This document shows positions 3,753 to 64,000 of a stretch of DNA of 64,000 nucleotides, in pieces. A program made the translations under genes and the position numbers. The stretch's first letter is position 1. Each line of letters begins with the position of its first letter. This DNA is from Spirosoma telluris. GTDB taxonomy: Bacteria > Bacteroidota > Bacteroidia > Cytophagales > Spirosomataceae. The stretch covers positions 3,488,501-3,552,500 of the forward strand of contig QLII01000001.1 of the NCBI GenBank assembly GCA_003259005.1, read 5' to 3'. Below the pieces are notes generated by a model. That model did no database searches. It saw only the letters and a program-made list of their open reading frames with translations, and was not told where the DNA came from.

Positions 3753-5766
3753 ATGGCAAAACGCAAAACGACTACGCCCCCGGCTCAACCCGACTCGTCG
3801 ATACAGCCCATCTCTTCCGAACCCGTACTTACCGAATCAGCTCCTGTTGAAACACCAATACATACGGATGGCCCTTATTCCCGCTTTACCGACTTCGATA
3901 TTCATCTGTTTCGGGCCGGAAAACACCAGCGGCTTTATGAAAAATTCGGGTCGCATGTTGTTGAACACAATGGCGTCATCGGCACCTATTTTGCTGTGTG
4001 GGCTCCTTCGGCCCGATATGTAGCTGTTATTGGCAACTTCAATGGCTGGGACAAAGGCAGTCATTCCTTAAATGTCCGTTGGGATTCATCGGGCATCTGG
4101 GAAGGGTTCATTCCGCACATTGGCCGGGGTGAAACCTATAAGTATTTTATCGTTCATGAAAGTGGGCGGGAACTGGAAAAAGGTGATCCGTATGCACACT
4201 GGTGGGAAGTTCCCCTAAAACGGCCTCCGTTGTGTGGGATACCTATTATGAGTGGAAAGATCAGGATTGGATGGCCAGCCGCCATGCTAAAAATGCCCTC
4301 AACGCGCCAATCTCAGTTTATGAAATGCATCTATCCTCCTGGCGACGTGACCCTAGCAATCCTGAACGGGAGCTGACTTATGGCGAAATTGCCGACGCGC
4401 TGGTGCCTTATCTACAGGATATGGGTTTTACGCACGTTGAGTTCATGCCGGTTATGCAGTACCCTTACGCCCCTTCATGGGGCTATCAGATTACGGGCTA
4501 CTATGCGCCGAGCAGCCGTTTCGGTACACCACAGGAGTTTATGCAACTCGTTGATCGACTGCACCAGGCAGGCATTGGTGTATTGCTGGATTGGGTTCCC
4601 TCCCACTTCCCGGCGATGCCCACGGCTTGTATGAATTCGATGGATCGCATCTGTACGAACATCCTGACATGCGGAAAGGCTATCATCCCGACTGGAAAAG
4701 CTATGTTTTCAATTATGGCCGTCCTGAAGTACGCTCGTTTCTGTTAAGTAACGCCATTTTCTGGCTTGACCGTTGCCATGCCGATGGGTTGCGTGTCGAT
4801 GCCGTTGCGTCGATGCTCTATCTGGATTACTCGCGTAACGCGGGCGAATGGGAGCCCAACGTATTTGGTGGTCGCGAAAATCTGGACACGATCTCGCTCT
4901 TCAAAGAAATCAACGAAGCTATTTATAAAGAATTTCCGGACACCCAGACCATTGCCGAAGAATCAACTGCTTTTCCGGGCGTTTCAAGACCGGTTTATAC
5001 GGGTGGGTTAGGCTTTGGCATGAAGTGGATGATGGGCTGGATGAATGATACCCTCCGCTATTTCGAACGCGATCCGGCTTTCCGCAAATACCATCAGGAG
5101 GAATTGACCTTCAGTACGATTTATGCCTTCACGGAAAACTTCATGCTTCCTCTCTCGCACGATGAAGTTGTATATGGCAAGCAATCGCTGGTGGGTAAAA
5201 TGCCCGGTGATGAATGGCAACGGTTTGCCAATCTGAGGCTGTTGTTCACTTACATGTTTACACACTCCGGGACAAAGCTGTTGTTTATGGGCGGAGAGTT
5301 TGGTCAAACATCAGAATGGAAATTTGATGATAGTCTCGATTGGCACCTATTGGATTACGGTCCGCATAAAGGGATGGCGGCCTGCGTAAAAGCATTAAAT
5401 AAACTCTACAAATCCGAACCGGGTCTATATGAGCGAAATTTCAGCCCCGATGGCTTTGAATGGATTGATACCACCGACCGGGAGAACACGGTCGTAACCT
5501 ATTGCCGAAAGGGTAATAATCCAGACGATACATTACTTGTTGTGCTGAATATGACCCCTATTCCGCGTTCTAATTACCGGATCGGTGTTCCATCTGCAGG
5601 TTCCTATCAGGAGGTGTTTAACAGTGATGCCACCGAGTTTTACGGCAGTGGGTTCACCAATACGGCCCTGATTGCCAGCGACGAAGAAATGTGGCACGGG
5701 CGACCTCAATCAATTCAGGTGAATGTGCCACCGCTGGGTGCCGTTGTTTTTAAAGTAGTGAAGTAG
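3753..5766 (+). CDS. glgB: 1,4-alpha-glucan branching enzyme (frameshifted)
   Basis: GlgB transfers alpha-1,4 glucan segments to make alpha-1,6 branches in glycogen. The N-terminal CBM48 domain (about residues 70-150, with F-A-V-W-A-P-S-A and G-N-F-N-G-W-D) precedes a GH13 barrel with Y-E-M-H, the nucleophile Asp in D-G-L-R-V-D-A-V (about 350), the acid Glu in I-A-E-E-S-T (about 402) and L-S-H-D-E-V (about 469). The frame breaks twice, at the C-run 4212-4215 and near 4611. Adding one base at each gives a continuous protein of about 671 residues, normal for the family. It works downstream of maltokinase in alpha-glucan synthesis. An unusually proline-rich 30-residue N-terminal tail precedes the CBM48. 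Confidence 0.93.
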
Positions 5767-5775
5767 GTTTATTGA

Positions 5776-5851
5776 GTGAATGATAGAATGAGTGATTGAG
5801 TGAATACCGTCCGGTAGCATTATTCACTCAATCACTCATTCTATCATTCAC
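5776..5851. terminator. long perfect inverted repeat between convergent genes
   Basis: Arms 5776-5806 and 5821-5851 are 31-bp perfect complements, and the 14-nt spacer holds a further small hairpin (TACCG/CGGTA). It lies between the ends of glgB (+) and the alpha-E gene (-), so a bidirectional terminator is the simplest reading. The arms are built of GAGTGA/GAATGA-like words rather than a GC core plus T-tract. Confidence 0.75.
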
Positions 5852-5853
5852 AA

Positions 5854-6816
5854 TTAAACCTCAATCGGCTTCAAGTCGAAATAGGTTTGAAAAACGGCGA
5901 CTGCGGCTTCATTGGTGCGCGTCTGAAAATTATCGAGATACTGATGCAGGCCCATTTTGAAAATATCGGCCGTTTCAGTAAACTCAATCTCGGTGCGCAG
6001 TTTAGAAAGTGCCCGTTCGGCTGAGTTGCCAAAGCCCCCTGTAATGTTGTTGCCCGAAATTTCGTAAAGCGATAATTCGGCCTGCCGAATACAGTGCGCC
6101 ACGGCACGCGGAAACATCTTATCCAGAATCAGGAATTCAACAATACTGGCTGGAGTCAGTGAACGATACTGCTGGCGGTGCATATTATACGCACTTACTG
6201 ACTTCAACACGGCCGACCAGATCATCAGGTCGATGGTTGATCCAACCAATTCTACTTCGGGAAGTAGCGTGAAGTATTTTACATCCAGAAAGCGGGATGT
6301 CTTATCTGCCCGCTCCAGAAAGCGCCCCAGCCGACCAAAATGCCAGGCTTCGTTGCGGGTGATGGTCGCATCGATAATACCGTAAAAAAGCTGGATGCTG
6401 TTTCGAATTTCCGTAAAAAAATGTTGGGTCTGAATCTCACCCCACTGCTGTTGAGGAGATGTATCGCGCACCATCAGATAAAACTGATTCAGGTGCTCCC
6501 ACATCTCTTTAGAAATTACTTCCCGAATGGTCCGGGCATTTTCACGGGCATAGCTCAGACAGCTCACAATCGAGTTCGGATTGCGCTTATCGAAGGTCAT
6601 AAACTGAATGACATTCTCACGTGTGGGCTTCTTGTAATAGTCTTTAAACAGGTCATTATCAGCCGTTGCGATCAGCAATGGTTCCCACTGTTGATCGACG
6701 TTCGGTGGCAGATCGAGGGCCAGATTAAAATTCACACTCATGAAACGAGCATAGTTTTCAGCCCGTTCGATGTAACGATGCATCCAGTAAACAGAATTGG
6801 CAACGCGACTCAGCAT
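5854..6816 (-). CDS. alpha-E domain protein (DUF403)
   Basis: This is an all-helical alpha-E protein of about 320 residues. It begins M-L-S-R-V-A-N-S-V-Y-W-M-H-R-Y-I-E-R-A-E-N, the family signature, so I place the start at ATG 6816. An upstream in-frame ATG at 6882 would add 22 residues that are not conserved. Typical conserved blocks are present: R-E-N-A-R-T-I-R-E, W-E-H-L-N, and the A-R-T-S-R-F-like A-D-K-T-S-R-F-L-D. These proteins usually sit beside a circularly permuted ATP-grasp protein and a transglutaminase-like protease, a cluster thought to make or modify a peptide. Neither partner is in this window. The biochemical role is unproven. Confidence 0.88.
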   Translation of the reverse strand: MLSRVANSVYWMHRYIERAENYARFMSVNFNLALDLPPNVDQQWEPLLIATADNDLFKDYYKKPTRENVIQFMTFDKRNPNSIVSCLSYARENARTIREVISKEMWEHLNQFYLMVRDTSPQQQWGEIQTQHFFTEIRNSIQLFYGIIDATITRNEAWHFGRLGRFLERADKTSRFLDVKYFTLLPEVELVGSTIDLMIWSAVLKSVSAYNMHRQQYRSLTPASIVEFLILDKMFPRAVAHCIRQAELSLYEISGNNITGGFGNSAERALSKLRTEIEFTETADIFKMGLHQYLDNFQTRTNEAAVAVFQTYFDLKPIEV

Positions 6817-7930: not shown

Positions 7931-9321
7931 ATGAAACCGATTGATCATTTTATGAGTACCTTTTTTGAGAATCCGGCGCGGTCTACATTATCGCGTCAGG
8001 ATTTCCTTCAGTTAACAGGTCGTGGTTTGGCCGTTGGTGCTTTAGGGAGCACTCTTGCATCGTGCGAGAAGAAACCAGAGGCCACCAATACGACTTCCTC
8101 AATTGCCAGCACCCCAGCGGCCCGGTTCCCAAACTCCCCGCTACCTCCCCGCCCGCTACAGTTCCAGCCGACTCAAGTAAGCCGATTGAACTGGAACAAA
8201 TCAAAGCCAAAACCGAGCAACAGGAAGGCCCCACACCTACGCCAATGCCTGAGGATAAACGTATTGGTTATGCGCTGGTTGGCCTCGGACACCTAACGCT
8301 CAACCAAATTCTACCCGCTTTTGGAGCTTGCACCAAATCGAAAGTGGTAGCCCTGGTAAGTGGTAGTCCCGAAAAAATGCAGAAAGTAGCAACTCAGTAT
8401 GGTATCAAAAAAGAGAGTTGTTACAGCTATGCTGACTACGATAAACTGCGCGACAACCAGGACGTTCAGGCTATTTATATTGTGCTTCCCAATGGCATGC
8501 ATGCCGAATACACCATTCGGGGAGCGCAGGCGGGTAAACACATTCTCTGTGAGAAACCGATGGCCAACTCAGTAGCCGAATGTCAGGCCATGATTGATGC
8601 CTGCAAGAAAGCGGACCGCAAGCTCATGATTGCGTACCGGATTCAATATGAGCCGCACAATAAGATGGTTCGCGAGATGGTTCAGAAAGAGCAGTTTGGC
8701 AAAGTCAAAAGTATTATTGCCAACAACGGCCAAAACTCCGATAACCCCAAACACTGGCGATTCAACAAAGCATTAGCTGGCGGTGGCTCACTCCCCGACG
8801 TGGGCTTATATTGCCTGAATACGATCCGGTTTGTGCTGGCCGAAGAACCCACTGAAGTGATGGGCTATGTACACAGTACGCCCAATGACCCGCGTTTCAA
8901 GGAAGTTGAAGAACAGGTAAACTGGCTTATGAAATTTCCGAGTGGTGTGCAGGCCAGTTGTGCTACCAGCTATGGGCATCACGATGATAAGAGTTACCGG
9001 GTGTTAGCCGATACAGGCTGGATTAAAATGGACCCGGCGTTCCCGTATACGGGACTAAAACTCGAAACGAGTCAGGCACAAGGCACAGAAAATCAAATCA
9101 TTCAACATAACATTGCTGATAAAGACCACTTTGCTACCGAAATGGATCACTTTTCGGAATGCTTATTAGCGAACAAAGTACCCTTCACACCCGGTGAAGA
9201 AGGGCTTCAGGACCAGAAAATAATGGAAGCTATTTATCAATCGGCTCGGGATGGGAAACCCGTTAAATTGGAGTCCGTAACAAAGAAAGATGCCTTCCGG
9301 GGAGAGGAGCCGGCAGCCTGA
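7931..9321 (+). CDS. secreted Gfo/Idh/MocA-family oxidoreductase (frameshifted)
   Basis: The N-terminus holds S-R-Q-D-F-L-Q-L-T-G-R-G followed by a hydrophobic stretch and T-L-A-S-C: a Tat-like export signal with only one arginine in the RR position, plus a possible lipobox. A Pro/Thr-rich linker follows. The Rossmann domain begins I-G-Y-A-L-V-G-L-G-H, and E-K-P-M-A-N-S carries the catalytic-lysine E-K-P motif of the family. The second half is the usual alpha/beta GFO_IDH C-terminal domain. The frame breaks at the C-run 8112-8115 in the linker; one added C joins the parts into about 463 residues. The substrate is probably a sugar or polyol and is unknown. Confidence 0.88.
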
Positions 9322-11556: not shown

Positions 11557-11558
11557 CG

Positions 11559-11873: not shown

Positions 11874-13722
11874 TTATTGATAAACCCGCGCCTGCAACCC
11901 AAATAATTCTGCGTAGCGACCATCTTTCTCCAGTAACTCGTAATGACTACCGATTTCAAGCAAGGTACCGTTTTCCAGCACCAGAATTCGGTCGGCCATA
12001 CGGACCGTGCTGAACCGGTGCGAAATAATGACCGACGATTTACCCTCCGTTAGCTTACCGAAACGCTGGAAAACTTCGTATTCGGCACGGGCGTCAAGGG
12101 CGGCCGTCGGTTCATCGAGAATGATTAATTGGGCATCCCGCATGTAAGCCCGTCCCAGCGCGACTTTCTGCCACTCACCCCCGGAAAGTTCGACGCCTTT
12201 TCCGAATGAACGACCCAACTGCTGGTCATACCCACCGGCCAGTTTAGCAATGACGGTGTCGGCCAGACTTCGTTGTGCCGAAGTTTCGATGCGTGGCTGG
12301 TTGGTTCGTTCATCAATATCCCCCACCGCAATGTTCACCCCTGCCGACATTTTAAAGCGGGTGTAATCCTGAAAAATGACACCGATGTTACGTCGGAGTT
12401 CCATCAGATCATACTCGCGCAGATCATAACCATCGAGCAAAATTCGTCCTTCAGCAGGATCATACAGGCGGGCGAGTAGTTTAACAAGCGTGGTTTTCCC
12501 AGCGCCATTTTCACCGACAAGAGCGAGTTTTTCACCCGCCTGAAGCGTAAAGGAGAGATTGCGTAAGGCCCAGCGTTCGGAGTTGGTGTATTTGAAACCA
12601 ACATTCTCGAATACGAAACCTTCCCGTATTGGATTTGGGAAAGCACGTACTGTTTTGGGCGAATGAATCAGCGGCTTGATAGCGAAATAATCGAACAAAT
12701 CCTGCAAATAGATCGCTTCCTGAGTCAGGCTACTGAACTGAAGCAAAATACCCTCTAAAGAACCCCGTACCTGCCGAAACGATCCGGCAAGGAACGTTAG
12801 ATCGCCAAGTGTTATCTGACCATTAACAGCCCGTAGTACAATCCAGACGTAAGCGCCATAATAACCCGCCGTTCCCAATGCCGTGAGCAAGGTTCCCCAA
12901 CCAGCCCGACTAATGGCCAGTGCCCGATTTTTCAGGTAATATCCCCAGGATAATTCCTTAAATCGATCGATCAGAAACCCGGATAAACCAAAGATTTTCA
13001 CCTCTTTAGCCGTTTCGTCACTGGCCCAATGTAACGCAGGTAATCAAGTTCGCGTCGTTCGGGTGTCCAGGAGCGTGAGAGTGAGTAACTACGTTGGTTG
13101 AAATAGTTGTCGCCAATAAACGAAGGCGTAACCGCAACCAGAATCAGTAATAACAGCCACGGATTATAAACTGCCAGCCCAGCCGCCAGAAAGCCTACCG
13201 AGATCAGTTCCTGCACCTGCCCAAAGACGCCCGAAAGCAGAACTGTTCGGCCCGTTGTCTGGCGCCGGGCGCGTTCGAGTTTATCGTAGAAGGTAGCGTC
13301 TTCAAACTGTTCCAGATCGAGCGTGGCTGCGTGTTCCATCAGCCGGATGGATGTCTGGTTGGCGAACAGATCGCCCAGCAAACTATCCATGAGCGCTACG
13401 GCCCGGCCCAATGCCGTGGAGAGAATCGCCAGCCCAAACTCGGCTCCCACCAGCCACCAGATGTAGTGCGAATCATCGGCTGCGGTCTGTTTGGAAAGCG
13501 CAACCACCTGATCAATAATCAGTTTACCGACGTAGAGTGTAGCCGCCGGAATAGCAGCCCGAACAAGCCGTAGAGCCGCATTACCAAGAAATAAACCGGC
13601 GACACTTCCCAGACTAATTTAAAAAATGCGGGCAGGTTACCCAGAGCCGCGAAGCGTTCGCGCCAGCTTACTTCGTCCTTAGTATCAGCGGGTTTAGTAT
13701 TTGGAATTTCAGACTTTGCCAT
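11874..13722 (-). CDS. ABC exporter, fused permease-ATPase (frameshifted)
   Basis: After correction this is one protein of about 616 residues with an N-terminal six-helix type I exporter membrane domain and a C-terminal ATPase. The ATPase has Walker A G-E-N-G-A-G-K-T-T, signature L-S-G-G-E-W-Q-K, Walker B L-I-I-L-D-E-P-T-A-A-L-D and the H-loop in I-I-S-H-R-F. The frame breaks near 13584 and at 13024-13026 (plus-strand coordinates); one base added at each restores continuity through the A-S-D-E-T-A-K-E-V-K-I-F cytoplasmic segment. It resembles lipid, peptide or drug exporters of the MsbA/LmrA type. No accessory gene indicates the substrate. Confidence 0.9.
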
Positions 13723-22922: not shown

Positions 22923-22930
22923 GGAGCAGC

Positions 22931-26441: not shown

Positions 26442-27343
26442 ATGCCAAATCAGATTTTAGTGATTGGTAGCTCAAATACCGACATGGTCGTTAAGACCCA
26501 GAAATTACCCGCACCAGGCGAAACTGTGTTAGGTGGCACATTTTTCATGAATCCCGGTGGTAAAGGAGCTAATCAGGCGGTTGCAGCCGCCCGGCTTAGT
26601 GGGCAGGTGACGGTTGTCGCTAAAGTCGGAAATGATATTTTTGGCCAGCAGGCCATCGCTGGTTTTAAGCAGGAAGGGATCAACACAACCTATATACAGA
26701 CCGATGGAGAGCACCCGTCGGGCGTTGCCCTGATCAATGTCGATGCCTCCGGCGAAAACTGCATCACGGTTGCTCCCGGCTCGAATGCCTATCTGCAAGC
26801 CAGCGAAACCGACGACGCGCTGCAAACAATAAGCGCCGACGCATTCGTACTTCTTCAACTCGAAATTCCGCTGGCCACGGTTGAGCATGTCGTGAAACAA
26901 GCCGCCAGACAGGGCTTACGCGTTATTCTCAATCCAGCTCCCGCCCAGCCGCTTCCAGCTGACCTCTTTCAACATCTGTTTTTGATTACACCGAATGAAA
27001 CCGAGGCCGAATTGTTCACGGGAATCCGGGTAACCGACTTACCTACGGCCAGGCAGGCGGCCCAAAAGCTGCACGAGATGGGCGTTACCAATGTCGTCAT
27101 TACACTTGGGTCAAAAGGTGCTTACCTCTCTACCGGAACGCAGGAACAACTCATTCCCACGCCCCCGTCAAGGCTGTAGACACGACAGCTGCCGGTGATT
27201 GTTTCAATGGTGCGCTAACCGTAGGTCTGGCCGAAGGGCAGGCGCTTCCTGATGCCATCGCGTTTGCCTGCAAAGCGGCCTCGATTTCGGTCACACGCAT
27301 GGGCGCTCAGGCGTCGATGCCGAAACGGGAAGAAGTCGATTAA
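26442..27343 (+). CDS. rbsK: ribokinase (frameshifted)
   Basis: This PfkB-family kinase phosphorylates ribose to ribose-5-phosphate. The start is N-Q-I-L-V-I-G-S-S-N-T-D-M-V, followed by P-G-E-T and the G-G-K-G-A-N-Q-A substrate motif near 40-47. The catalytic D-T-T-A-A-G-D-C-F-N-G lies after a frameshift at the C-run 27162-27166; one added C gives about 300 residues, the usual length. It sits 202 bp upstream of a secreted ADP-ribosylglycohydrolase on the same strand, a pairing that suggests salvage of ribose released from ADP-ribosyl or nucleoside compounds. Confidence 0.93.
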
Positions 27344-35859: not shown

Positions 35860-35977
35860 ATAAGGCTGAAGTGTTTAGGCAAGGATTATTGCAAGCTACA
35901 AAATGTACACATTATGGCAAAATGCTAACTCATTCGAAAATATAAGCGCAGGAATAATGTTCCGGTTTTCAGTTACC

Positions 35978-35985
35978 TACCTTTG
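35978..35985 (+). promoter_or_regulatory. -7 box very close to the 35991 start
   Basis: TACCTTTG fits TAnnTTTG and ends 5 nt before the ATG at 35991, so transcription would begin at or near the start codon (leaderless mRNA). Confidence 0.45.
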
Positions 35986-35990
35986 TCCTC

Positions 35991-44368: not shown

Positions 44369-45030
44369 ATGGAATCTCCGTTCCGAACCAGGGTAAAAAT
44401 TTGTTGTATTAGTAGCCTCTCCGAAGCAAGGCTGGCTATTCAGTTGGGTGCCGATGCACTTGGTCTGGTAGGCCAAATGCCCAGCGGACCTGGTGTAGTG
44501 CAAGATGATTTAGCCGCCCAGATTGTCAACGCTACCCCTCCGCCCATAGCCACATTTATGCTAACCAGTGAAACCACGCTTGACGCTATCATCGCCCATC
44601 AACAGCGTGTAGGAGCCAATACGATTCAACTTGTGGATGCGGTGGCCCCGAAATCTACGCCCAATTACAGAACGCATTGCCTGCAATAAACGTGGTGCAG
44701 GTTATTCATGTCATTGACGAGCGGAATCTCGATGAGGCCCTTCAGGCGGTTCAGAATGGCGTCGATGCCTTGTTGCTGGATTCTGGCAATCCAACTCTGG
44801 CCGTAAAAGAATTAGGGGGTACGGGTCGGGTACATAACTGGCAGGTGAGTCGGCAGATTGTAGAGCAATCACGGGTTCCTATATTTCTAGCGGGTGGTCT
44901 AACCCCCGAAAACGTGCGCCAGGCCATCGACACCGTACGGCCCTTTGGCCTCGATATTTGCAGCGGAGTCCGAACGGGCGGCCATCTGGATGCCCAAAAG
45001 CTGGAAGCGTTCATGCGGGCGATTAACTAA
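44369..45030 (+). CDS. trpF: phosphoribosylanthranilate isomerase family protein (frameshifted)
   Basis: TrpF isomerises phosphoribosylanthranilate in tryptophan synthesis. K-I-C-C-I-S has the catalytic-base Cys of the usual K-I-C-G-I motif (here Cys-Cys). A lost C at 44646-44649 splits the gene; restoring it gives A-P-E-I-Y-A-Q-L-Q and then L-L-L-D-S-G-N with the acid Asp, G-G-T-G-R-V-H-N-W and F-L-A-G-G-L-T-P-E-N-V. The length is about 220 residues, normal. The absence of other trp genes, and the Cys replacing Gly, leave a small chance that it is a paralogue with a different substrate. Confidence 0.85.
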
Positions 45031-45923: not shown

Positions 45924-47261
45924 ATGAAGCGACTTATTCTGCCGCTGGTTACTCTTTTTTTGTGCGCCAGACTGACGAATCCTGCCAGCGCCCAACAAAC
46001 CGCCGTTGACTTTTTTGAAAGTGGCATAGCCAAAAGCAAAGCAAACGATTTTACGGGTGCCCTACAGGCATTCAGCATGGCCATTACCATGAATCCCGAT
46101 AACTCGGCAAGTTATTACAACCGAGGACTTGCCAAAGCCAATCTGAAAGACCATCGGGGCGCGATTCTGGACTATGACCGTGCTATTGAACTCAACGGGA
46201 AAGATGCCCTGGCCTATCTGAGTCGTGGCGTTAGCAAGAGCAAGCAGGACGACCATCGGGGGCATTACTGGATTTCAGCCGGTCCATCGAACTAAACCCG
46301 ACGATCCACAGGCTTACTACAACCGGGGCGTCAGCCGGAGTCGCATAGATCAGTATCGGGGAGCCCTGACCGATTTCACCAAAGCCCTTGAACTCGACCC
46401 AACCAATGCCCAGACCTACTACGTACGGGGGGTTACGAAACAAAAACTGGAAGATTTTGCCGGTAGCTTACCAGATTTCACCAAAGTGATTGACCTTACG
46501 CCCAAACGTCCCCAGGCGTATGCCGGGCGAGGTATGTCGAAGGTTGAGTTAAACGATTTTACGGGTGCCGTTACTGACCTTAATAAAGCGATTGAACTTA
46601 GCCCAGAAGATGGAGAATCCTATTTTTATCGAGGATATGCCAAAAGCAAGTTAGAAGACTACAAAGGTTCTCTCCCCGATTATGATAAGGCCATCGCGCT
46701 TAAAGGCGACAACTACCGGGCTTATTATGGACGGGGATTCTGCCGCAGCAAACTTGGCGATCAAAAAGGCGCGGTTCAGGATCTTAACCAGGCCATTGAA
46801 ATGAATAATGTCAATGTCGACTCGAAGGTTGTTTATAGTGGCCGTATCAATCGCGCAACCCTCGATAAGTTGCGTGATGTTGTTCAGGAACGCAATAAAA
46901 TTAATGAGTTAGGCAGTGAACGCGCCGAAGCCTATTTCAGCAGGGGCGTCAGTAAAAACAAGCAGGGCGATCAAAAAGCTGCTATTATCGATCTTAATAA
47001 AGCTATTGAACTCAGCCCAACCTATGCCGAAGCCTATTTCAGCCGGGCCTGATTAAGTCGGCACAAGGCGATCAGAAAGCCGCTATCATGGACTGCAACA
47101 GTGCCATTAAACTAAATCCACGCTATGCCGAAGTATACTACATCCGGGGCATTATCAAGCATAGCCTCGGCGACGAAAACAGTGGCTGTCTAGATCTCTC
47201 CAAAGCGGGCGAACTGGGGTATAACCCGGCCTATAAAGTAATAAGCGATTATTGTAACTAG
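45924..47261 (+). CDS. secreted tetratricopeptide-repeat protein (frameshifted)
   Basis: After correction the protein has about 446 residues: a signal peptide (A-S-A-Q, about residue 21) and then about ten 34-residue TPR units, most with the local pattern Y-Y-x-R-G-x-x-K-x-x-x-x-D-x-x-G-A-x-x-D-x-x-K-A-I-E-L. A non-TPR insert near 285-320 (N-V-N-V-D-S-K-V-V-Y-S-G-R-I-N-R) breaks the run. Three bases are lost: 46258-46262, 46297-46299 and 47045-47047. TPR scaffolds bind partner proteins; the partner is unknown. It ends with a terminator at 47278-47319. Confidence 0.9.
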
Positions 47262-47277: not shown

Positions 47278-47319
47278 AAAAGGGCTGACGCAGGATCATT
47301 GATGCGTAAGCCCTTTTTT
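47278..47319 (+). terminator. Rho-independent terminator of the TPR gene
   Basis: The stem AGGGCT-GACGCA pairs with TGCG(T)A-AGCCCT around a loop near 47293-47302. Six T follow (47314-47319) and AAAA precedes. Confidence 0.85.
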
Positions 47320-47384
47320 ATAGCGTTGATTCATTTTCTGACGCAAACCGCGTATTTCTGTATCAATCTTTTGATTCAGTTCGT

Positions 47385-47615
47385 TTATTTTTTGATGACC
47401 TCTTCAAACTTTCGATTAACTTCCTGACGAAATTCAGCCTGCTCATCAGCTAAACGGCTGGTTTTGATAGTCAGATTGGCTAAGCTTTCTGCCGTAGTAT
47501 CCATATTCTGATCAAGGCGCTTAAATACCGTTAACATTTGAGCTTGCCCCTCAAGTTTTTGAGACAGTTCAATCATCTGTAACGTCAAACGGTCAATCCT
47601 TTGTTCAGTTATCAT
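47385..47615 (-). CDS. small coiled-coil protein of unknown function
   Basis: The protein has 76 residues and is predicted to be one long helix, with heptad-like spacing of L, I, M and V (L-T-L-Q-M-I-E-L-S-Q-K-L, then T-I-K-T-S-R-L-A). It has no signal peptide or transmembrane segment. Similar short coiled-coil proteins are often found beside DUF820 or helicase genes, but none is adjacent here. No function can be assigned. Confidence 0.6.
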   Translation of the reverse strand: MITEQRIDRLTLQMIELSQKLEGQAQMLTVFKRLDQNMDTTAESLANLTIKTSRLADEQAEFRQEVNRKFEEVIKK

Positions 47616-47727: not shown

Positions 47728-48497
47728 CTACTCAAACCGCAGGTGCTTCACGGAATCGCCCGATGATTCAAGTTCGAGCAAAGCGTCGATGCCAATATCC
47801 AGATGAACATTGACAAACTGCCCCGTCACTTTTTTGTCGCTCTCTTCGGTTTTGACACCTTCGGGTACTAACGGGTTATCAGATACGAGCAAAAGGGCAC
47901 CGTGCGGAATGGAATTAACAAAACCTACGGTGAAAATCGTAGCCGTTTCCATGTCGATGGCCATTGTTCGAAGTTCGCGTAGATAGTCTTTAAATACTTC
48001 GTCGTGTTCCCAGATACGTCGATTGGTTGTATAGACTGTACCGGTCCAATAGTCCAGTTCGTATTTTTTGATCGTTGATGAAACGGCACGCTGTAATCGG
48101 AAAGACGGTAGCGCCGGAATTTCGGGGCGCATGTAGTCATTACTGGTGCCTTCGCCCCGGATGGCAGCAATCGGTAGTACCAGATCGCCAATCTGTGTTT
48201 TTTTCAACCCTCCACATTTACCCAAAAACAAAACTGCCTTCGGTGCAACCGCAGAGAGTAGATCCATAACAGTAGCCGCCATAGCACTGCCCATTCCGAA
48301 ATTGATGATGGTAATGTTATTGGCCGTAGCCGTTTGCATAGCTCGTCCGAGACCAAAATCTCTACGTCGAACTTTTTGGCAAAGAGCTCAACATAGTTGA
48401 TAAAATTGGTCAGCAAAATGTATTCGCCAAATTGCTCAATGGGTGTACCCGTATAGCGTGGCAACCAATTCTGAACGATTTCTTCTTTTGTCTTCAT
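47728..48497 (-). CDS. amn: AMP nucleosidase, short form (frameshifted)
   Basis: Amn cleaves AMP to adenine and ribose-5-phosphate. The family's Bacteroidota form starts M-K-T-K-E-E-I-V-Q-N-W-L-P-R-Y-T-G. A lost base at 48353-48354 splits it; adding one G on the minus strand gives I-L-G-L-G-R-A-M-Q-T-A-T and about 256 residues. I-I-N-F-G-M-G-S, L-F-L-G-K-C-G-G-L and A-I-D-M-E-T-A-T-I-F (the phosphorylase-type catalytic site with M-E and D residues) are all present. It is divergent from the HsdR-N-like gene with an inverted repeat between. Confidence 0.92.
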
Positions 48498-48500
48498 TTT

Positions 48501-48589
48501 TAAAGAGCGAGAGAGTGAATGAGTGAAAGAGCGAACAGTTGACGCGAGTTTTTTCCATTCTTTCGCTCATTCACTCTTTCGCTCTTTAT
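48501..48589. repeat. inverted repeat between divergent genes
   Basis: Arms of about 31-33 bp (48501-48533 and 48557-48589) pair with three or so mismatches and are built of AAAGAGCGA, GAGTGAATGAG and GTGAAAGAGCG words. It fills the whole gap between amn (-) and the 48599 gene (+), both of which start there. It resembles the perfect repeat at 5776-5851. A terminator role is not expected here. Confidence 0.7.
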
Positions 48590-52547: not shown

Positions 52548-53067
52548 TTAGCTGACTAATTGTTTTTGGAGCCAAAAGTCCCGCTGGCGTTCGGCTCCGA
52601 ATTGGAAATAATGAAAGCCAAATCGCTCGAAACCCATTTTTTCATAAAAGGCGATGGCCCGGACATTATGCTCCCCACCCCTAACCAAACAGAGGTATAG
52701 CCTTTATTGCGCGTCCAGTCGAGGCAATACTCGATGAGCCTACGCCCCTGTCCCTGACCAATTTGGTTTTGTAAAAGGTAGATACGCTGAATTTCAATGG
52801 CATTCCGGTCCTTCATTCGGCGCGGGGAGCATAACGACGCAGTTTAGCATAGCCAACCGGCTGTCCATCAGCAGATTCAAGTATAAAAAAAGTAGATCGC
52901 CGGTCGGCCAGTTCCGTTTCCAGAATTGGGACGCTAATAGCCGACTGAATATAGTCCTCAACGAGTTCGGCAGGGTTGTGCGGTGGGCCAAAGGCCTCAC
53001 GCATCGTTGTGGCAGCAAGCTCAGTAAGCGCGCTTACATCAGCGGTAGTTGCGAGTCGAATGGTCAT
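52548..53067 (-). CDS. GNAT-family N-acetyltransferase (frameshifted)
   Basis: The corrected protein has about 173 residues from ATG 53067 (M-T-I-R-L-A-T-T-A-D). Two bases are lost, at 52824-52827 and 52673-52676. Restored, it reads the GNAT order: A-T-T-M-R-E-A-F, then L-Q-N-Q-I-G-Q-G-Q-G-R-R-L-I (acetyl-CoA P-loop Q-x-x-G-x-G/A), then H-N-V-R-A-I-A-F-Y-E-K-M-G-F. The true stop is TAA at 52548-52550. The substrate is unknown. It is divergent from maf by 79 bp. Confidence 0.88.
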
Positions 53068-53118
53068 AGTCAAGAATAAGCAATCAACCAATGTACGCAA
53101 AAACCCTCATTTTTGAAT

Positions 53119-53752: not shown

Positions 53753-55308
53753 ATGACCACTGCAAGCTCTGCCCAATCTAATATACGTCCATTTCATACC
53801 AAGGCCGATTCAATACCCGTCGGGCATACCGGCGTTCATTACGAGATATTTGTTCGCTCCTTTGCCGACTCCAACGGCGACGGTATTGGCGACCTCAACG
53901 GCATCACCAATAAACTCGACTACCTACATGATCTTGGCGTTTCGGCTATCTGGCTCATGCCCATAAGTCCTTCGCCGAGTTATCATAAATATGATGTGAC
54001 GGACTATCACGACATCGATCCCGAATACGGCACGATGGCCGATTTCAAACGATTGCTAGCCGAAGCTCATCAGCGGGGCATTGCCGTCATAATTGATCTG
54101 GTGCTGCACCATACCAGTATTCAGCATAACTGGTTCCGGGAAGCGTCCAAAGGGCCAGAAAATCCCTATTGGAATTACTATAAATGGCTGACACCTGCCG
54201 AGATCAAACGACGGAAACTAGCCACCCGTGATATTACTGCCGATTCGGGTGAGAAAAACCCCTGGCACTCCGTCCGGAACGCCACCTTTCCTGAACAATA
54301 CTACGGCATGTTCTGGAGCGGCATGCCTGATCTGAATTTTGACTATCAGCCTGTTCGGGATGAGTTTTTTAAGATAGCCCGGTACTGGCTTAACGAGGTA
54401 GGTGTCGATGGATTTCGGCTCGATGCGGCCCGTCACCTCTATCGTGAAGCCGAAGAACCCAAAAATCATGAATTCTGGCAGGAATTCGGCAAGGTCGTTG
54501 AAGCGGCCAAACCGGGTGCCTACACGGTGGGTGAAGTCTGGACCCGCCCCGAACGAATTGCGCCTATTTCCGGGGGTTGAAAGCCAACTTCAATTTTGAC
54601 CTTCAGCTGGCCATTGCCGAAATAGTTGGACAGGAAAACGACACCGAAGATTTAGTTGAATTCCTGATCTACGTCCATCATACATTTGGCAATGTCAACC
54701 CCAACTTCATTGATGCGCTGCTTCTGTCCAACCATGATCAGAACCGGATTGGCAGTTTGCTAAAGGGAAATCTTGACCGGTTGAAAGTAGCAGCGAACCT
54801 ATTACTTACCCTACCGGGCCTACCCTACCTCTACTATGGCGAGGAAATTGGTATGCTTGGCATGAAACCTGACGAATACATCCGCGAACCGTTTTTGTGG
54901 GATGTTCGTGCGAAGGATACTCAGCGCACCCGATGGCGTCGGGGAAAGTACAGCACCAGCCAAACCGTTCGGCCACTGGCTCAGCAGCAGGGCGATCCAG
55001 ATTCACTGTTCAATCATTATAAACGCCTGATTCACTACCGAAATAGCCACCCAATTCTGAATAATAACCTTAGTAAGCTCTTACCATCCGGTATTCGGCA
55101 GAAAGGCATTGTTGCGTTTATTCGGCAGGACGCCAGCGGTGGCCCCTGCGTTCTACTGGTTCATAACCTGACAAACAAACCTATTGAGGTCATATTTTCA
55201 CCCGGCGAGGAATGGTGTCGGTGCATCGTATTTGAAACAATACCAGGTGGCTCGTTCACCGGCGATCGGGTTGTAGTGCCGGGTTATGGCTGTGTGGTTG
55301 TTGAGTAA
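53753..55308 (+). CDS. GH13 alpha-amylase-type glycosidase (frameshifted)
   Basis: The corrected protein has about 518 residues and no signal peptide. The barrel opens V-H-Y-E-I-F-V-R-S-F-A-D-S-N-G-D-G-I-G-D, then D-L-V-L-H-H-T-S (region I), G-F-R-L-D-A-A-R with the nucleophile Asp, V-G-E-V-W with the acid Glu, and L-S-N-H-D-Q-N-R. A lost base at 54563-54564 splits it; adding one gives A-P-Y-F-R-G-L-K-A. It is an intracellular maltodextrin-acting enzyme of oligo-1,6-glucosidase or alpha-amylase type. The intact set of GH13 catalytic residues supports activity. Confidence 0.9.
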
Positions 55309-55336
55309 TCCGATTTATCAGATAGCTTTATGCTGG

Positions 55337-55362: not shown

Positions 55363-55374
55363 CTTCTGTTTTTC

Positions 55375-56305
55375 ATGAATATCTATTTCGTTTTCTTACT
55401 GATCTTACTTACAAACGTCACCTTTGGTCAGGAACCGTCGGCCACGCGAATTACGAAGCACATCCATAAACTCGCTTCCGATAACATGAAGGGCCGAGGA
55501 ACGGGAAGCCCGGAGAATGCCAAAGCCGCCCGCTATATCGAGAAATACTTTAAAAAACAGGGACTGAGCCCGTTAGGTACGATGGTTATTATCAATCATT
55601 TACAGCCAAAGTCCGGCGAGTCGTTGTTCCGGATAGCCTACGAAAAGCAGCTAATGTCATTGGATTTCTGGATAATGGCGCGCCTTATACGATTGTCATC
55701 GGTGCTCACTACGATCATCTGGGGCTAGGTCGCCAGGGAAGTTCACGGGATTCGTTACCTCAGGGAAAGATTCACAACGGTGCTGACGACAATGCATCGG
55801 GGGTAGCCGGACTTCTGGAAATGGCTCATTATTTCACTAAAAATGGCGTAAAAGAGCCGTATAATTTTCTATTTATGGCCTTTGGTGCCGAAGAACTAGG
55901 CTTACAGGGTTCGCGCTATTTTTTGAATAATCCGACCTTGCCGCTCGAAAAAATGAATTTTATGGTGTGTATGGATATGATTGGGCGCTATAACCCGATC
56001 GGGGCGTAGGCATTGGCGGGTACGGCACCAGCGACACCTGGCCAACCGTATTTAAAGGAGCCGAAAGTTCCATCAAATTCTTTACTGACCGTGCAGGCAA
56101 TGGGGGCTCCGATAACGCAGCTTTCTACGCCAAACAGGTTCCGGTTCTGTTTTTTCATACTGGCGGTCATCCCGACTATCATAAGCCTACCGACGACCCG
56201 GACAAAATCGATGCTAAGTCCGAAGAAGCTATTCTTCGGCTGGAAATCAGGCTACTCGAAAACGCCTTACAACAACCAAAAATGACGTTTACACCCGTGA
56301 AATAA
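55375..56305 (+). CDS. secreted M28-family metallopeptidase (frameshifted)
   Basis: I use ATG 55375, which gives a signal peptide ending V-T-F-G-Q; an upstream ATG at 55330 lies before the terminator hairpin. Two bases are lost, at 55580-55581 and 55994-55996. Restored, about 310 residues: G-A-H-Y-D-H-L-G-L-G and N-G-A-D-D-N-A-S-G supply the first zinc ligands, F-G-A-E-E-L-G-L-Q-G-S the catalytic Glu pair, and T-G-G-H-P-D-Y-H the last His. These are the M28 (aminopeptidase Y/S) di-zinc residues. It should be an aminopeptidase outside the cytoplasm. Confidence 0.9.
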
Positions 56306-56323
56306 TACTCTCTTCTCAACACT

Positions 56324-57743
56324 ATGCGATACGTATTCTTAGTCTTAACGTTCATTTCCTTACAGACGCTGGCCCAGAAGCCTTCCCGCCCTAACATTAT
56401 CTTTATTTTGGCCGATGACCTTGGCTATGGGGATATAGGACTCAACGGCCAAAACCTCATTAAAACCCCAAACATTGACCGGCTGGCGGCTGAGGGCATG
56501 CAATTTCCTCAATTTTACGCGGGTACCTCTGTCTGTGCGCCTTCGCGGTCGTCATTGATGACCGGGCAGCATACAGGGCACACCTACATCCGGGGCAACA
56601 AAGAAGTCAAACCGAGGGGCAACAACCTATTGCCGATTCTGTCACGACCGTTGCCGAACTCCTCCAACGAGCGGGTTACGCGACTGCCGCTTTCGGTAAG
56701 TGGGGATTAGGTCCCGTAGGGTCAGAAGGGGACCCAAACAAGCAAGGCTTCGACCGGTTCTATGGCTACAATTGTCAGGCGCTGGCGCATCGCTATTACC
56801 CGGATCATCTCTGGGATAACAACCAGAAAGTTGTGCTGACCGGTAATGAAAACCTACGTCAGGCCAAAGAATATGCTCCTGATCTGATTCAAAAACAGGC
56901 GCTGGCCTTTCTGGACTCCCGCAAGAGTGGTCAGCCTTTTTTTCTATTTCTGCCCTATATTCTTCCTCATGCCGAACTGCTCGTTCCCGACGATAGTCTC
57001 TTCCGGCATTACAAAGGGAAGTTCGCCGAAAAACCCTATGCAGGTGCCAATTACGGTCCTGATGCGAAAACAGGAGGGTATACCTCCCAGGCTTATCCGA
57101 GAGCAACTTTTGCTGCGATGGTAGCCCGCCTTGATCTATACGTTGGTCAGGTAATCGCGAAATTGAAAGCTAAAGGATTGGATAAAAATACGCTGGTGAT
57201 TTTTACCAGTGATAATGGACCCCACATAGAAGGGGGTGCCGATCCAACCTTCTTCAACAGTAGTGGTGGCTTCCGTGGCGTCAAGCGCGATCTGTATGAA
57301 GGTGGTATTCGCGAGCCCTTTTTGGCCCGCTGGCCGGTGTCATTAAGCCCGGTAGCCGAAACGATTTCATTGGTGCTTTCTGGGATCTGCTACCCACCTT
57401 CACCGAACTAGCCGGTGCGCAAACACCAGCCCGCATTGATGGTGTTTCATTTGTAGCGTCGCTCACGGGCAAAGGAACGCAGAAAAAACACGACTATCTC
57501 TATTGGGAATTTCATGAAAACGGCGGAAGGCAAGCCATTCGTCAGGGCGACTGGAAAGCCATTCGATTACAGGTTGCGAATAACCCAACTGGCCCGGTTG
57601 AATTATACGATCTCTCGAAAGACCCTGCCGAAAGCAACAACGTAGCGGCTAAGAATCCTGAAAAAGCCGAACAGCTCGGGCGACTCATGAACGAATCACA
57701 TATAGAATCACCGTTGTTTCCATTTATACGATTGAGAGAATAA
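56324..57743 (+). CDS. secreted arylsulfatase-family sulfatase (frameshifted)
   Basis: The corrected protein has about 473 residues and a signal peptide (T-L-A-Q, residue 18). [15 protein letters not shown] gives the metal-binding Asp pair. C71-A-P-S-R75 is the formylglycine motif. Later T-S-D-N-G-P-H completes the metal site. Two bases are lost, at 56616-56619 and 57336-57337, and the stop is TAA 57741-57743. It is unlike the sulfatase at 31202 (arylsulfatase A branch with [12 protein letters not shown]). It follows the M28 peptidase by 18 bp and is probably co-transcribed. Confidence 0.92.
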
Positions 57744-57846: not shown

Positions 57847-58783
57847 ATGGCCCAATCGACCCGTCGAACCGCCCTCAGTGTCCGCCATTTGGTGGGTATA
57901 AAAGACCTGACCGAGTCTGACATTCAGCTTATTCTGGAAACGGCCAGTCAGTTTAAGGAAGTTATTAACCGGCCTATCAAAAAGTCCCCTCGTTACGCGA
58001 TGTAACGATTGCCAACGTTTTTTTTGAGAATTCGACCCGCACCCGGCTGTCGTTTGAACTAGCCGAAAAACGTTTATCGGCTGATGTTGTCAATTTTTCA
58101 GCCTCGGGTAGCTCAGTCAAAAAAGGCGAAACCCTGCTGGATACAGTCAACAATATTCTTGCCATGAAGGTCGATATGGTGGTAATGCGGCACAGTAGCC
58201 CCGGCGCTCCTCACTACCTTACCAAACACATCAAAGCCAACGTTGTCAACGCAGGTGACGGCACCCATGAACACCCAACACAGGCGTTGCTGGACTCCTT
58301 CTCCATCCGCGAAAAACTCGGCGATGTTGCTGGCAAGCGTATCGCCATTATCGGCGACATTACGCACTCGCGGGTGGCACTTTCCAACATTTTCTGTCTG
58401 CAAAAACAGGGTGCAGAGGTTATGGTTTGCGGTCCTAAAACGCTAATTCCTAAATACATTGAAGCGCTTGGCGTGAAGGTCGGACATGACGTGCGGGCGG
58501 CCCTGGCGTGGTGCGATGTAGCCAACGTACTCCGCATTCAGTTAGAGCGGCAGCAAATCAAGTACTTCCCCTCGCTGCGGGAATATTCGCTCTATTTCGG
58601 CATCTCGAAACAAATGCTCGACGAACTAGACCGGCCCATTGTGCTCATGCACCCGGCCCCATTAATCGTGGCGTTGAGTTAACGTCCGATGCCGCCGATT
58701 CGTCGCATTCCATTATATTGGACCAGGTCGAAAACGGCGTAGCGGTCCGGATGGCGGTGCTGTATTTGCTGGCGCAATTGTAG
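57847..58783 (+). CDS. pyrB: aspartate carbamoyltransferase, catalytic chain (frameshifted)
   Basis: PyrB condenses carbamoyl phosphate and aspartate in pyrimidine synthesis. [12 protein letters not shown] near 58-69 binds carbamoyl phosphate; [14 protein letters not shown] and G-D-I-T-H-S-R-V-A follow. Two bases are lost: the A-run 57979-57983 and near 58671. Restored length is about 312 residues with the proper H-P-A-P-I-N-R-G end. No pyrI or other pyr gene is adjacent. It starts at ATG 57847. Confidence 0.93.
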
Positions 58784-59568: not shown

Positions 59569-61466
59569 ATGAAAAACCTTTCCTCCCTCGCAGGACGGCT
59601 GGTTGTCCTCGTCTTGTACTTTACTCACTATGCTCACGCCCAGGTCCAGGAAGATATACTCAAAAAACTACAGGAAATTGCCATTATCGAGCAGAAAGTC
59701 ATGATGCCTATGCGGGATGGCGTTCGGCTGGCGACGGATATTTACCGCCCTAAAACCGACAAACCCGTCCCGATTATTTTCTCTAAAACACCTTACAATT
59801 TCAACGCCTGGGGTGATGGCGAACTTCGGCAGAACTCATACCAGGGCGCACTTGATGCCGTAAAACGCGGGTATGCCTATGTCGTTCAGAATGAGCGCGG
59901 CAAATTCTTCTCCGAAGGGGATTGGGATATTCTCGGACCTCCAACGACTGATGGCTACGATGCGTTTTCGTGGATGGCCAAACAACCGTGGTCTAACGGA
60001 AAAATTGGAACACTAGGCTGCTCTTCTACGGCCGAATGGCAGATGGCGGTGGCCGCTTTAGACCACCCGGCGCACGCGGCTATGGTGCCCATGAGCTATG
60101 GCGCGGGCGTGGGGCGCGTGGCTCCTTTCATGGAACAGGGTAACTGGTACCGGGGCGGGGCGCAACAAATGCTCTTTACCACCTGGTTATATGGTACGCA
60201 GGTCGATGCTCTGGCCCGGCCGCTTTTTCCCAAAACAGCCAGTAGTGAAGACCTGACCCGCGTATCCCGATTCTATGACTTAGCCCCCGAAATGCCGAAA
60301 GTCGACTGGGCACAGGGATTGAAATATTTGCCCGTTCAGGACATCATCAAAAATGTGAATGGAGCAAAAGGAGTTTATGAGAAAATGATCGTTCGAAAAC
60401 CAAACGACCCGGAATGGTACAAAGGTGGTCTCTATCATGACAATATGCCCTTTGGCGTTCCTAGCTACTGGTTTGCGTCCTGGTACGACGTCTCGACCGG
60501 CCCGAACATCGCCTTGTTCAACCACGTTCGTAAAAACGCAACAGACCCACAAATTCGCGACAATCAGTTCCTGGTTATTGCCCCCACGCTGCACTGTGCC
60601 TATAAACGAGCCACCGCAAATACCGTTGTGGGCGAACGGAGTGTGGGCGATGCCCGTCTGGATTACGACGCCCTCACCTACGGCTGGTTTGATTACTGGC
60701 TCAAGGGAGAAAACAATGATGTTCTAAAAAACACACCTCGTGTAAGGTACTACACAATGGGATCTAATAAATGGCAAACTTCCGATACCTGGCCGCCCGC
60801 TACGTCCGAAATGACCACTTATTACCTGTCTAGCGGAGGCCATGCGAATAGCCTCTATGGCGATGGGAAGCTTACCCCAAAACCATCTGGTAAAGACGAA
60901 AAACCCGATTTGTTTGCCTATGATCCGGCCTATCCGGTGCCATCGTATGGCGGCAATGTTTGCTGCACAGGAACGGCCATACAAGGCGGGGCATTCGATC
61001 AGCACCAGATGGAAGCCCGGCAGGATATTCTGGTCTATACCACCGAACCTTTTGCCAATGGCGTGGAACTAACGGGGTCGATTGAATCCACACTGTATGT
61101 TTCATCCGACGCCAAAGACACTGATTTCACCGTTAAACTGATTGACGTTTATCCGGATGGGAAAGCCTATAATCTGGACGAAACAATCCTCCGGCCCGCT
61201 ACCGCGATGGCTTTGAGAAAGAAGTCTGGATGGATAAGGGAAAAGTGTATAAGCTGATCTTAAGTCCAATGTCTACCAGCAATTATTTTGCACCGGGACA
61301 TAGTATTCGGGTTGAAGTCTCAAGCAGTAACTTTCCCCGTTTTGATCGAAACATGAATACGGGAGGAGACAATTACAGCGAATCGAAAGGGATAGTCGCT
61401 CATAATCAGGTGTTTCATTCGACGCAGTATCCATCGCAAATCCGATTGCCCATTGTAAAGAAGTAG
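59569..61466 (+). CDS. secreted CocE/NonD (X-Pro dipeptidyl-peptidase-like) hydrolase (frameshifted)
   Basis: The corrected protein has about 632 residues and a signal peptide ending A-H-A-Q. The alpha/beta hydrolase nucleophile is in [29 protein letters not shown] is the family start motif. The last third is the beta-jelly-roll domain seen in the S15/CocE class. A lost G at 61193-61194 splits the end; restored it reads [14 protein letters not shown]. Relatives cut X-Pro peptides or acyl and beta-lactam substrates; the true one cannot be told. Confidence 0.9.
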
Positions 61467-62745: not shown

Positions 62746-62760
62746 CCGCAGCACTACCTG

Positions 62761-63459
62761 ATGCCGACCTTCGCCGACAAAGCCATCGCTTACTACAATA
62801 CCCTGGTTGCCCCAGCGAATCTGCCACCTGATATTGGTGTACTGAATCCCTATCAACAGCCAGAAGTTGAGCACATTGTTGGCGAGTTTTACAGCCGATT
62901 TTTTAGTGATCCTAATCCACGCGTTTTTGTACTCGGCATCAATCCAGGCCGATTTGGGGCGGGTGTAACGGGAATATCCTTCACAACCCCTCAGAATCTG
63001 CGTCGATACTGTGGGATTGATAATGACCTGCGTGATACGCCCGAGTTATCGAGCCGATTTATTTATCAGGTTGTCGAAGCGTTTGGCGGAGCCAAAGAGT
63101 TTTACAGTCAATTCTTCCTGACATCTCTCTTTCCCTTAGCCCTAACGAAATCAGGCCGGGGCACTGGACCGATCAATTACAATTTCTACGACGACCGCAT
63201 AACCACCGAAGCCCTTTGGCCTGCTATAACTGAAACGGTTCGAACGCAAATCAACTTCGGCTATAACCGAAAGGTAGCCGTGTGTCTGGGACGTAAAAAC
63301 GAGACCTATTTACGTCGACTCAACGACCAGCAAAGCTTTTTCGACCGTATCGTTACACTTGATCACCCACGTTACATTCTGCAATACAAAACAAAGGATA
63401 TACCAATGTACCTGGAGCGTTATATCGCGACACTGCATGATTGCATAACCGATGTATAA
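62761..63459 (+). CDS. SMUG2-type uracil-DNA glycosylase family protein
   Basis: The protein has about 232 residues. An in-frame ATG at 62737 lies inside the inverted repeat, so I prefer ATG 62761 (M-P-T-F-A-D-K-A-I-A-Y-Y-N). V-F-V-L-G-I-N-P-G-R-F-G-A-G is the base-binding/active-site motif A of the family, with T-G-I-S-F-T-T-P next, and D-H-P-R-Y-I-L-Q-Y matches the late H-P-S-type motif. SMUG2 enzymes remove uracil or deaminated bases. It is a single gene, intact. Confidence 0.85.
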   Translation: MPTFADKAIAYYNTLVAPANLPPDIGVLNPYQQPEVEHIVGEFYSRFFSDPNPRVFVLGINPGRFGAGVTGISFTTPQNLRRYCGIDNDLRDTPELSSRFIYQVVEAFGGAKEFYSQFFLTSLFPLALTKSGRGTGPINYNFYDDRITTEALWPAITETVRTQINFGYNRKVAVCLGRKNETYLRRLNDQQSFFDRIVTLDHPRYILQYKTKDIPMYLERYIATLHDCITDV

Positions 63460-63519
63460 ACTTTTGAAAAAAAACGATGCTATTCAAAAGAATTTTGGAA
63501 AGTTTAAACAGCCTCTTTC

Positions 63520-64000
63520 TTACATCTTCGTTAATTCTAATGTAACGGTGTAGGTTTCATCCTTACCATCACCATCAAAGTCTTCCAGTTCTTTACCAGA
63601 CAACTTCAAGACATTGCCACTAATAACGGTATCGTAGACGGTTACATCGCTACCACTGGTAAGGGTCAGTTTACTCCCATCCAACTTCCAGGTCGAATTA
63701 TCTTCAACTGGATTCACATCGGTAGAGGCTGAGCATTTAGCGCCGGGGTTCCGGTAACTTTTCCACTCGCATTAAATATAATCGTTGTCCCTGTCAGGCA
63801 ATCAACGAAATCATTCCCAAGCCCATTCGGTAGGGATTTGAAATAGGCTAGAACATCGTTGCTTTTTTGTCCGGTTCCCAGGAAATCAACACCAGGATCA
63901 ATTTTATAACCTGAGATTTTCCAGCTTCCTTCAACCGATGACGTAGTTGGAGTTACGGTGTCATCACTACCTTTTTTACAACTACCGAACCACATTGGCA
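63520..64000 (-). CDS. lipocalin-like lipoprotein, partial at right edge (frameshifted)
   Basis: The stop is TAA at 63520-63522 and the frame runs off the window edge. G-S-C-K-K-G-S-D-D looks like the end of a lipoprotein signal, so the missing start lies just outside. V-E-G-S-W-K-I-S-G-Y is a typical lipocalin-like/DUF4923-type strand, repeated as S-T-W-K-L-D-G-S-K-L-T-L. One base is lost at 63743-63744; adding it gives P-G-A-K-C-S-A-S-T-D. An acidic D-F-D-G-D-G-K-D-E-T segment may bind calcium. The function is unknown. Confidence 0.75.

What the first reader, a model, noticed from the sequence alone, without database searches (positions are those of the whole stretch)
3753..63995. Thirty-nine single-base losses split 24 genes, always as deletions
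I found 39 places where a conserved protein changes frame. On both strands every change is in the direction of one missing base, and most fall in runs of C, G or A (for example 4212-4215, 27162-27166, 36212-36216, 46258-46262). The restored proteins have normal lengths and complete active sites, and essential genes (argH, pyrB) are hit as often as dispensable ones. Random genuine mutation would give both signs and would favour non-essential genes, so the likeliest cause is homopolymer undercalling in the assembly. Anyone annotating this genome automatically would miscall dozens of genes as pseudogenes or gene pairs.
Basis: seen in the sequence. Interest (0 to 1): 0.7.

Follow-up and report, generated by a model that had tools for sequence, protein, structure and literature searches.

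The report
Missed bases in a Spirosoma assembly
The many split genes in this stretch are almost certainly reading errors of the genome assembly, which drops one base from short runs of G or C, and not broken genes in the living bacterium.

Summary
Against three syntenic Spirosoma relatives the window has 37 frame changes in 23 genes (a 24th gene is weak): 36 are one missing base, one is a net loss of two, none is a gain. Comparisons among the relatives give 9 shifts in 242 kb. The pattern is genome-wide: a homology-free scan of 26 other stretches, possible plasmids included, finds 116 losses against 14 gains; congener loci give 6 against 3. Sites sit at G/C runs of 4 or more (54% against 5% expected) but not at A/T runs. 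Three results exclude ordinary biology. Translation genes without a listed second copy are split, with four losses in thrS. Two rRNA copies have no substitutions over 2,202 bases but three single-base gaps in G/C runs. Protein identity does not fall after a shift. The best explanation is undercalling of short G/C runs in an unpolished, probably long-read, consensus. This is a known kind of artefact. Raw reads were not available.

The parts
3753..5763 (+). glucan-branching-enzyme-like gene (name recalled from its motifs, not searched), frame changes near 4213 and 4608, each one missing base
   Evidence: three relatives intact
7931..9312 (+). dehydrogenase of the Gfo6/IolG type, change near 8118
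   Evidence: two relatives give -1, the third the equivalent +2
11877..13722 (-). MsbA-like ABC transporter, changes near 13023 and 13595
23986..26214 (-). bacteriophytochrome-like histidine kinase, changes near 24253, 24816, 25949
26442..27340 (+). ribokinase, change near 27163 at the run 27162-27166
27546..29107 (+). gene without NCBIfam match, change near 27610
   Evidence: G008 gives the equivalent +2
29132..30308 (+). gene without NCBIfam match, changes near 30174 and 30254
30418..31016 (-). gene without NCBIfam match, change near 30931
32824..34682 (-). PQQ-dehydrogenase-like gene, changes near 33061, 33306 (net two bases) and 33667
35973..36430 (+). gene without NCBIfam match, change near 36211 at the run 36212-36216
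36518..37113 (+). gene without NCBIfam match, change near 37083
37191..38458 (+). MFS transporter (all NCBIfam matches below their cut-offs), change near 37261
39609..40938 (+). argH, argininosuccinate lyase, changes near 40303 and 40464
44369..45024 (+). phosphoribosylanthranilate-isomerase-like gene (below cut-off), change near 44646
45924..47258 (+). TPR-repeat protein, changes near 46264, 46296, 47045
47305..47615 (-). weakly conserved gene (55% identity), change near 47395; not in the count of 37
47731..48570 (-). AMP nucleosidase, change near 48358
52551..53091 (-). gene matching a 181-aa ORF of G023 (acetyltransferase-like, recalled), changes near 52674 and 52826, seen with one relative
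53753..55305 (+). alpha-amylase-family enzyme, change near 54564
55375..56302 (+). aminopeptidase-like gene, changes near 55580 and 55999
56315..57740 (+). sulfatase-like gene, changes near 56616 and 57338
57847..58780 (+). pyrB, aspartate carbamoyltransferase, changes near 57986 and 58657; identity to S. arboris prints as 1.00
59569..61463 (+). CocE/NonD family hydrolase, change near 61196, seen with one relative
63523..63998 (-). conserved small gene, change near 63748, seen with one relative

Best explanation
The genes are whole in the organism, a Spirosoma species related to S. arboris. The deposited consensus dropped single bases while it was being called, mostly from runs of about 3 to 6 G or C, on chromosome and smaller contigs alike, so that open frames break without any mutation in the cell. 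Shown here: the one-sided losses, their genome-wide spread, the G/C-run context, the intact relatives, the broken translation genes, and the three gaps between otherwise identical rRNA copies. Inferred: that the cause is a long-read consensus without short-read polishing (9.09 Mb in 4 contigs fits). The platform is unknown. The total is likely several thousand lost bases, from roughly 0.5 to 0.8 per kb of coding sequence.
For: 36 of 37 window shifts are one missing base and none is a gain. 9 shifts in 241,779 bases in the six comparisons among relatives, against 34, 36 and 18 losses in the window with the three relatives; one of these clean relatives, G008, is S. foliorum PL0132 by its exact length, itself a Nanopore assembly polished with Medaka (PMC10482864, passages). 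Homology-free HMM: window 23 losses and 3 gains; 26 other stretches of this genome 116 and 14. G/C run of 4 or more within 4 nt at 54% of 48 sites against 5% of random coding positions; A/T runs not enriched. rRNA copies: 2,202 bases, 0 substitutions, 3 single-base gaps, all missing in the same copy, all in G/C runs of 4-5. thrS has four losses, valS one, proS one, IF-2 one plus a net -2, EF-G a net -2. Identity to S. arboris is 0.889 before the first shift and 0.918 after it, 0.882 in unshifted genes. This genome has completeness 94.65 and contamination 4.15, whereas 31 of 35 congeners have 99-100% and the other four are in 380 or more contigs. [quoted passage not shown]
Against: rpoB and rpoC are unbroken; at the window's rate, scaled for their fewer G/C runs, about 3 to 4 losses would be expected in 8.3 kb. 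The 17 housekeeping genes have 0.35 per kb, half the window's rate, and 10 of them show no shift. G/C runs of 4-6 are not scarcer in this genome than in congeners of like G+C, so no global depletion is visible. 7 of 37 sites have no G/C run longer than 2 within 6 nt. The five least conserved genes (4.6 kb) have no loss. One of 26 stretches shows no loss. No raw reads or second assembly of the strain were examined.
Confidence: 0.96

Rival explanations
1. Real pseudogenes: the strain has lost function in 22 of 50 genes compared here by true one-base deletions, for example through a mismatch-repair defect that shortens runs.
For: Run-shortening deletions are what slipped-strand mutation gives (established knowledge); rpoB and rpoC are spared; housekeeping genes have a lower rate than the window.
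Against: thrS, valS, proS, EF-G and IF-2 are split and no second copy was listed. The only two in-frame stops met in window alignments (53116 with S. arboris, 15991 with G023) lie upstream of conserved starts. No decay after the shift. A/T runs, equally open to slippage, are not enriched. Two rRNA copies differ by gaps only.
Confidence: 0.02
2. Programmed or widespread recoding: ribosomes or RNA polymerase slip at these runs and restore the frame, so that the shifts are real in DNA but silent in protein.
For: The downstream protein is conserved and the sites lie at runs.
Against: The relatives have the same genes in one frame, apart from 9 shifts in 242 kb. Runs are short G/C runs, not the long A/T runs known for transcriptional slippage (recalled). 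Non-coding rRNA shows the same kind of gaps.
Confidence: 0.005
3. Mixed: nearly all sites are undercalls, but one or a few are real recent frameshifts hidden among them.
For: Relatives show a background of 9 shifts in 242 kb, which would give about two in this window; 7 of 37 sites have no G/C run above 2 within 6 nt.
Against: The background shifts have both signs, mostly gains, whereas no gain is left in the window after six clusters at gene edges were dropped.
Confidence: 0.3

Closest known systems
Residual homopolymer deletions in PacBio consensus sequence (E. faecium ATCC 700221, PMC4888979; one passage read)
Gene-fragmenting indel errors of long-read assemblies (Kastor, PMC12007338; passages read)
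   Same: Deletions in short runs break genes; the share of annotated pseudogenes fell from 23.3 to 5.6% after correction
   Different: There A/T runs were hit about twice as often as G/C runs; here only G/C runs are enriched

Membership tests
Homopolymer undercall artefact of a consensus assembly | Losses far outnumber gains | tested here: met
   Window 36 single losses plus one net -2, 0 gains after dropping 6 clusters (2 losses, 4 gains) at gene edges or outside genes; elsewhere 116 to 14
Homopolymer undercall artefact of a consensus assembly | Losses lie in homopolymer runs | tested here: met
   G/C runs of 4+ at 54% of 48 sites against 5%; A/T runs not enriched; 7 of 37 window sites without a G/C run above 2
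Homopolymer undercall artefact of a consensus assembly | Independent of gene function and of coding | tested here: met
   Translation genes broken; gaps between rRNA copies; mild excess of one-base gaps missing in the window in non-coding alignments, 29/23, 36/24, 26/12, against 36/33 and 20/24 between relatives. But rpoB and rpoC intact and a lower rate in 17 housekeeping genes
Homopolymer undercall artefact of a consensus assembly | Spread over all replicons | tested here: met
   25 of 26 stretches have at least one loss; stretches of C2, C3 and C4 included
Homopolymer undercall artefact of a consensus assembly | Reads contradict the consensus | not testable with these tools
   No reads held
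Real pseudogenes | Spare essential single-copy genes | tested here: not met
   thrS, valS, proS, EF-G, IF-2 split
Real pseudogenes | Also carry nonsense changes and relaxed downstream sequence | tested here: not met
Programmed frameshift | Shift present in orthologues too | tested here: not met
   Relatives read these genes in one frame

The most novel reading that the evidence does not exclude
A few of the 37 sites, most plausibly among the 7 without a G/C run above 2 nearby, could be genuine frameshifts of this strain, masked by the far more numerous undercalls.
Probability: 0.3. Interest if true: 0.12.

Novelty: not a real feature. Interest (0 to 1): 0.12.

Why it matters
It is a practical warning. 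Any reading of this genome that counts pseudogenes, auxotrophies, gene pairs or 'missing' single-copy genes will be wrong in many places, probably thousands, and the completeness and contamination scores of this assembly probably carry the same mark. The homology-free test used here (excess of losses over gains, checked on duplicate rRNA copies) could flag such assemblies without reads.

Tried and rejected
A count of homopolymers in this genome against congeners was meant to show a shortage of G/C runs; it showed none and is uninformative. A motif explanation (for example a methylated site) was considered: CCGG and CCCGG are enriched near sites, but less than plain C4 and C5, so run length is the simpler cause; the two are not fully separated. 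Extending the S. arboris comparison along its contig to 414 kb of this genome used 267 ORFs, of which 62 passed the filters, 12 more genes and 14 more losses than in the window, so synteny seems to end near the window. Comparing 23S genes of relatives got no usable answer and was not repeated. Searches for the published record of this assembly gave nothing that I could tie to it (listings, one announcement read whole, PMC7498429, one genome of 8,662,329 bases; passages of PMC10482864, which is G008). Papers and 56 other than those named were seen as listings only.

The first essential-gene scripts were faulty: one search stopped on an error, and read loci from minus-strand matches the wrong way round. 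Only one search is used for those genes; I use only the rates by identity class. The 17 genes are a choice among the loci (further small-GTPase matches were not compared), and some are cut by the locus ends (leuS, IF-2). The metG shift lies upstream of its conserved start (residue 27; the profile match starts at residue 50) and is not counted as a break. One search also lists one stop each for ileS (residue 26) and rpoB (residue 5) at the very start of stop-to-stop frames. A looser setting of the HMM gave 28 losses and 4 gains in the window and 7 losses and 13 gains in the three 80-kb controls, 12 of these 20 in G008; I used the stricter one.
Full report
WHERE IT IS. The window is part of the 8.66-Mb contig C1 of a 9,085,640-base genome in 4 contigs. 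For one window protein, 13 of the 14 best loci in the named genome collection are Spirosoma and the other is a Spirosomataceae bin. The most similar of 35 congeners searched is G003, which is S. arboris HMF4905 by its contig length, with 72-86% DNA identity over long syntenic blocks. Spirosoma is an environmental genus (recalled).

CHECK OF THE OBSERVATION. I aligned the ORFs of at least 100 aa of three syntenic relatives to the window with a protein-to-DNA alignment that allows frame changes of one or two bases in either direction at nearly equal cost; genes with at least 60% identity and 70% coverage were counted. With S. arboris (50 genes, 50,142 aligned bases) 22 genes are hit: 34 losses of one base, one gain, one net loss of two. 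With G023 (46 genes, 45,786 bases) 25 genes are hit: 36 losses, two gains, one net loss of two. With G008 (27 genes, 30,342 bases) 14 genes are hit: 18 losses, one gain, one net loss of two, and two '+2' at places where the other two relatives give -1. The six comparisons among the relatives give 9 shifts in 241,779 bases: two losses, five gains, one net loss and one net gain of two. Merged, there are 43 clusters in the window. I dropped six, two losses and four gains: five at or upstream of conserved starts, one in an antisense/intergenic ORF seen with one relative. The 37 that remain lie in 23 genes; 36 are one missing base; the one at 33306 is a net loss of two that reads as two one-base gaps against G023 and G003. 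The four runs it cites are exactly there.

CONTEXT. Of 48 single losses found with S. arboris in 414 kb around and including the window (34 inside, 14 outside), 54% have a G or C run of at least 4 within 4 nt, against 5% of random coding positions; A/T runs of at least 4 are at 14% against about 12%. For 108 losses found without homology in 24 stretches elsewhere in the genome, the figures within 8 nt are 40% against 9% for G/C, and 17% against 18% for A/T. In the window itself 23 of 37 sites have a G/C run of 4 or more within 6 nt, 7 have one of 3, and 7 have none above 2.

GENOME-WIDE. A hidden Markov model trained on congeners, which needs no homology, finds 23 losses and 3 gains in the window, and 0-1 losses and 1-3 gains in each 80-kb control stretch of G003, G023 and G008. 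On 26 other stretches of this genome, 368 kb of it called coding, it finds 116 losses and 14 gains; 25 of 26 stretches have at least one loss, including stretches of the smaller contigs C2, C3 and C4. On loci L002-L015 (13 of these 14 were also used for training) it finds 6 losses and 3 gains in 217 kb. The genome's completeness and contamination, 94.65 and 4.15, stand out: 31 of 35 congeners are at 99-100% complete and the other four are in 380 or more contigs.

TESTS THAT SEPARATE ERROR FROM BIOLOGY. First, essential genes. Of 17 housekeeping genes compared with S. arboris (37,581 bases), 7 show shifts, 10 single losses and three net -2; one of the -2 (metG) lies upstream of the conserved start and is dropped. 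thrS has four losses, valS one, proS one, IF-2 one and a net -2, EF-G a net -2; cysN, not essential, has three. The family searches listed no second copy of thrS, valS, proS, IF-2 or EF-G in this genome (read from position and length). A cell without valyl- or threonyl-tRNA ligase does not live (established knowledge). Ten of the 17, rpoB and rpoC among them, show no shift. Second, an internal replicate: two rRNA copies share 2,202 aligned bases (3' part of 23S, spacer, 5S) with no substitution and three one-base gaps, all in 23S, all missing in the same copy and all in G/C runs of 4-5. Coding cannot matter there. Third, there is no decay: identity to S. arboris is 0.889 before the first shift and 0.918 after, 0.882 in genes without a shift. 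The two in-frame stops met in the window alignments (53116, 15991) lie upstream of conserved starts; the comparisons among relatives list 11 stops, most near the start of the aligned range but four in one short ORF. Fourth, direct DNA alignment: one-base gaps inside conserved coding are missing in the window 52, 52 and 30 times and in the relatives 13, 14 and 15 times (S. arboris, G023, G008); in the control pair G003/G023 the figures are 13 and 18, in G003/G008 8 and 8.

RESULTS THAT DO NOT FIT WELL. rpoB and rpoC carry no loss in 8.3 kb; scaled for their fewer G/C runs about 3-4 were expected, so the chance is a few per cent. The housekeeping genes have 0.35 shifts per kb against 0.72-0.85 in the window. 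The five least conserved window genes have none in 4.6 kb, the 0.92-0.95 identity class has 1.21 per kb and the most conserved class 0.59, so there is no trend that would mark sparing of conserved genes. G/C runs of 4-6 are not scarcer than in congeners of like G+C. I read these as uneven local quality rather than another cause (inference): pyrB, whose identity to S. arboris prints as 1.00, has two losses.

EXPLANATION. Undercalling of short G/C runs in a consensus, most likely an unpolished long-read assembly, accounts for nearly all of this. [quoted passage not shown] In that second case A/T runs were worse than G/C, so the platform here is left open. A long-read assembly need not look like this: G008 is S. 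foliorum PL0132 by its exact length of 8,853,064, a Nanopore assembly polished with Medaka (PMC10482864, passages), and it shows few shifts. From about 0.5-0.8 losses per kb of coding sequence the whole assembly should hold several thousand (inference).

VERDICT. It is not a biological feature.

Noticed in passing
window 55305-55423: Insertion point: S. arboris has four ORFs of 186, 479, 1069 and 413 aa here that have no match in the window, and G023 has about 7.6 kb of extra sequence at the same junction.
   Followed up: no
window 16000-24000: None of the 37 sites falls in this 8-kb bin, though the gene at 20862-22922 is conserved in G023 and G008; about 4-5 would be expected from an even spread.
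   Followed up: partly
window 11302-11813 and near 59002: Further loss candidates from the homology-free scan (11563 at the looser setting, 59002) where no aligned orthologue was available to judge.
   Followed up: partly
L091 4957-7784 and L092: The search lists two 23S loci in this assembly (S. foliorum has three, PMC10482864), and the two differ only by single-base gaps over the part that could be aligned.
   Followed up: partly
G000 contigs C2 (196,545), C3 (129,313), C4 (101,754): Smaller contigs, possibly plasmids, with low called coding density in several stretches (0.17-0.53 in L109, L107, L108, L106) as well as losses in six of seven stretches.
   Followed up: no
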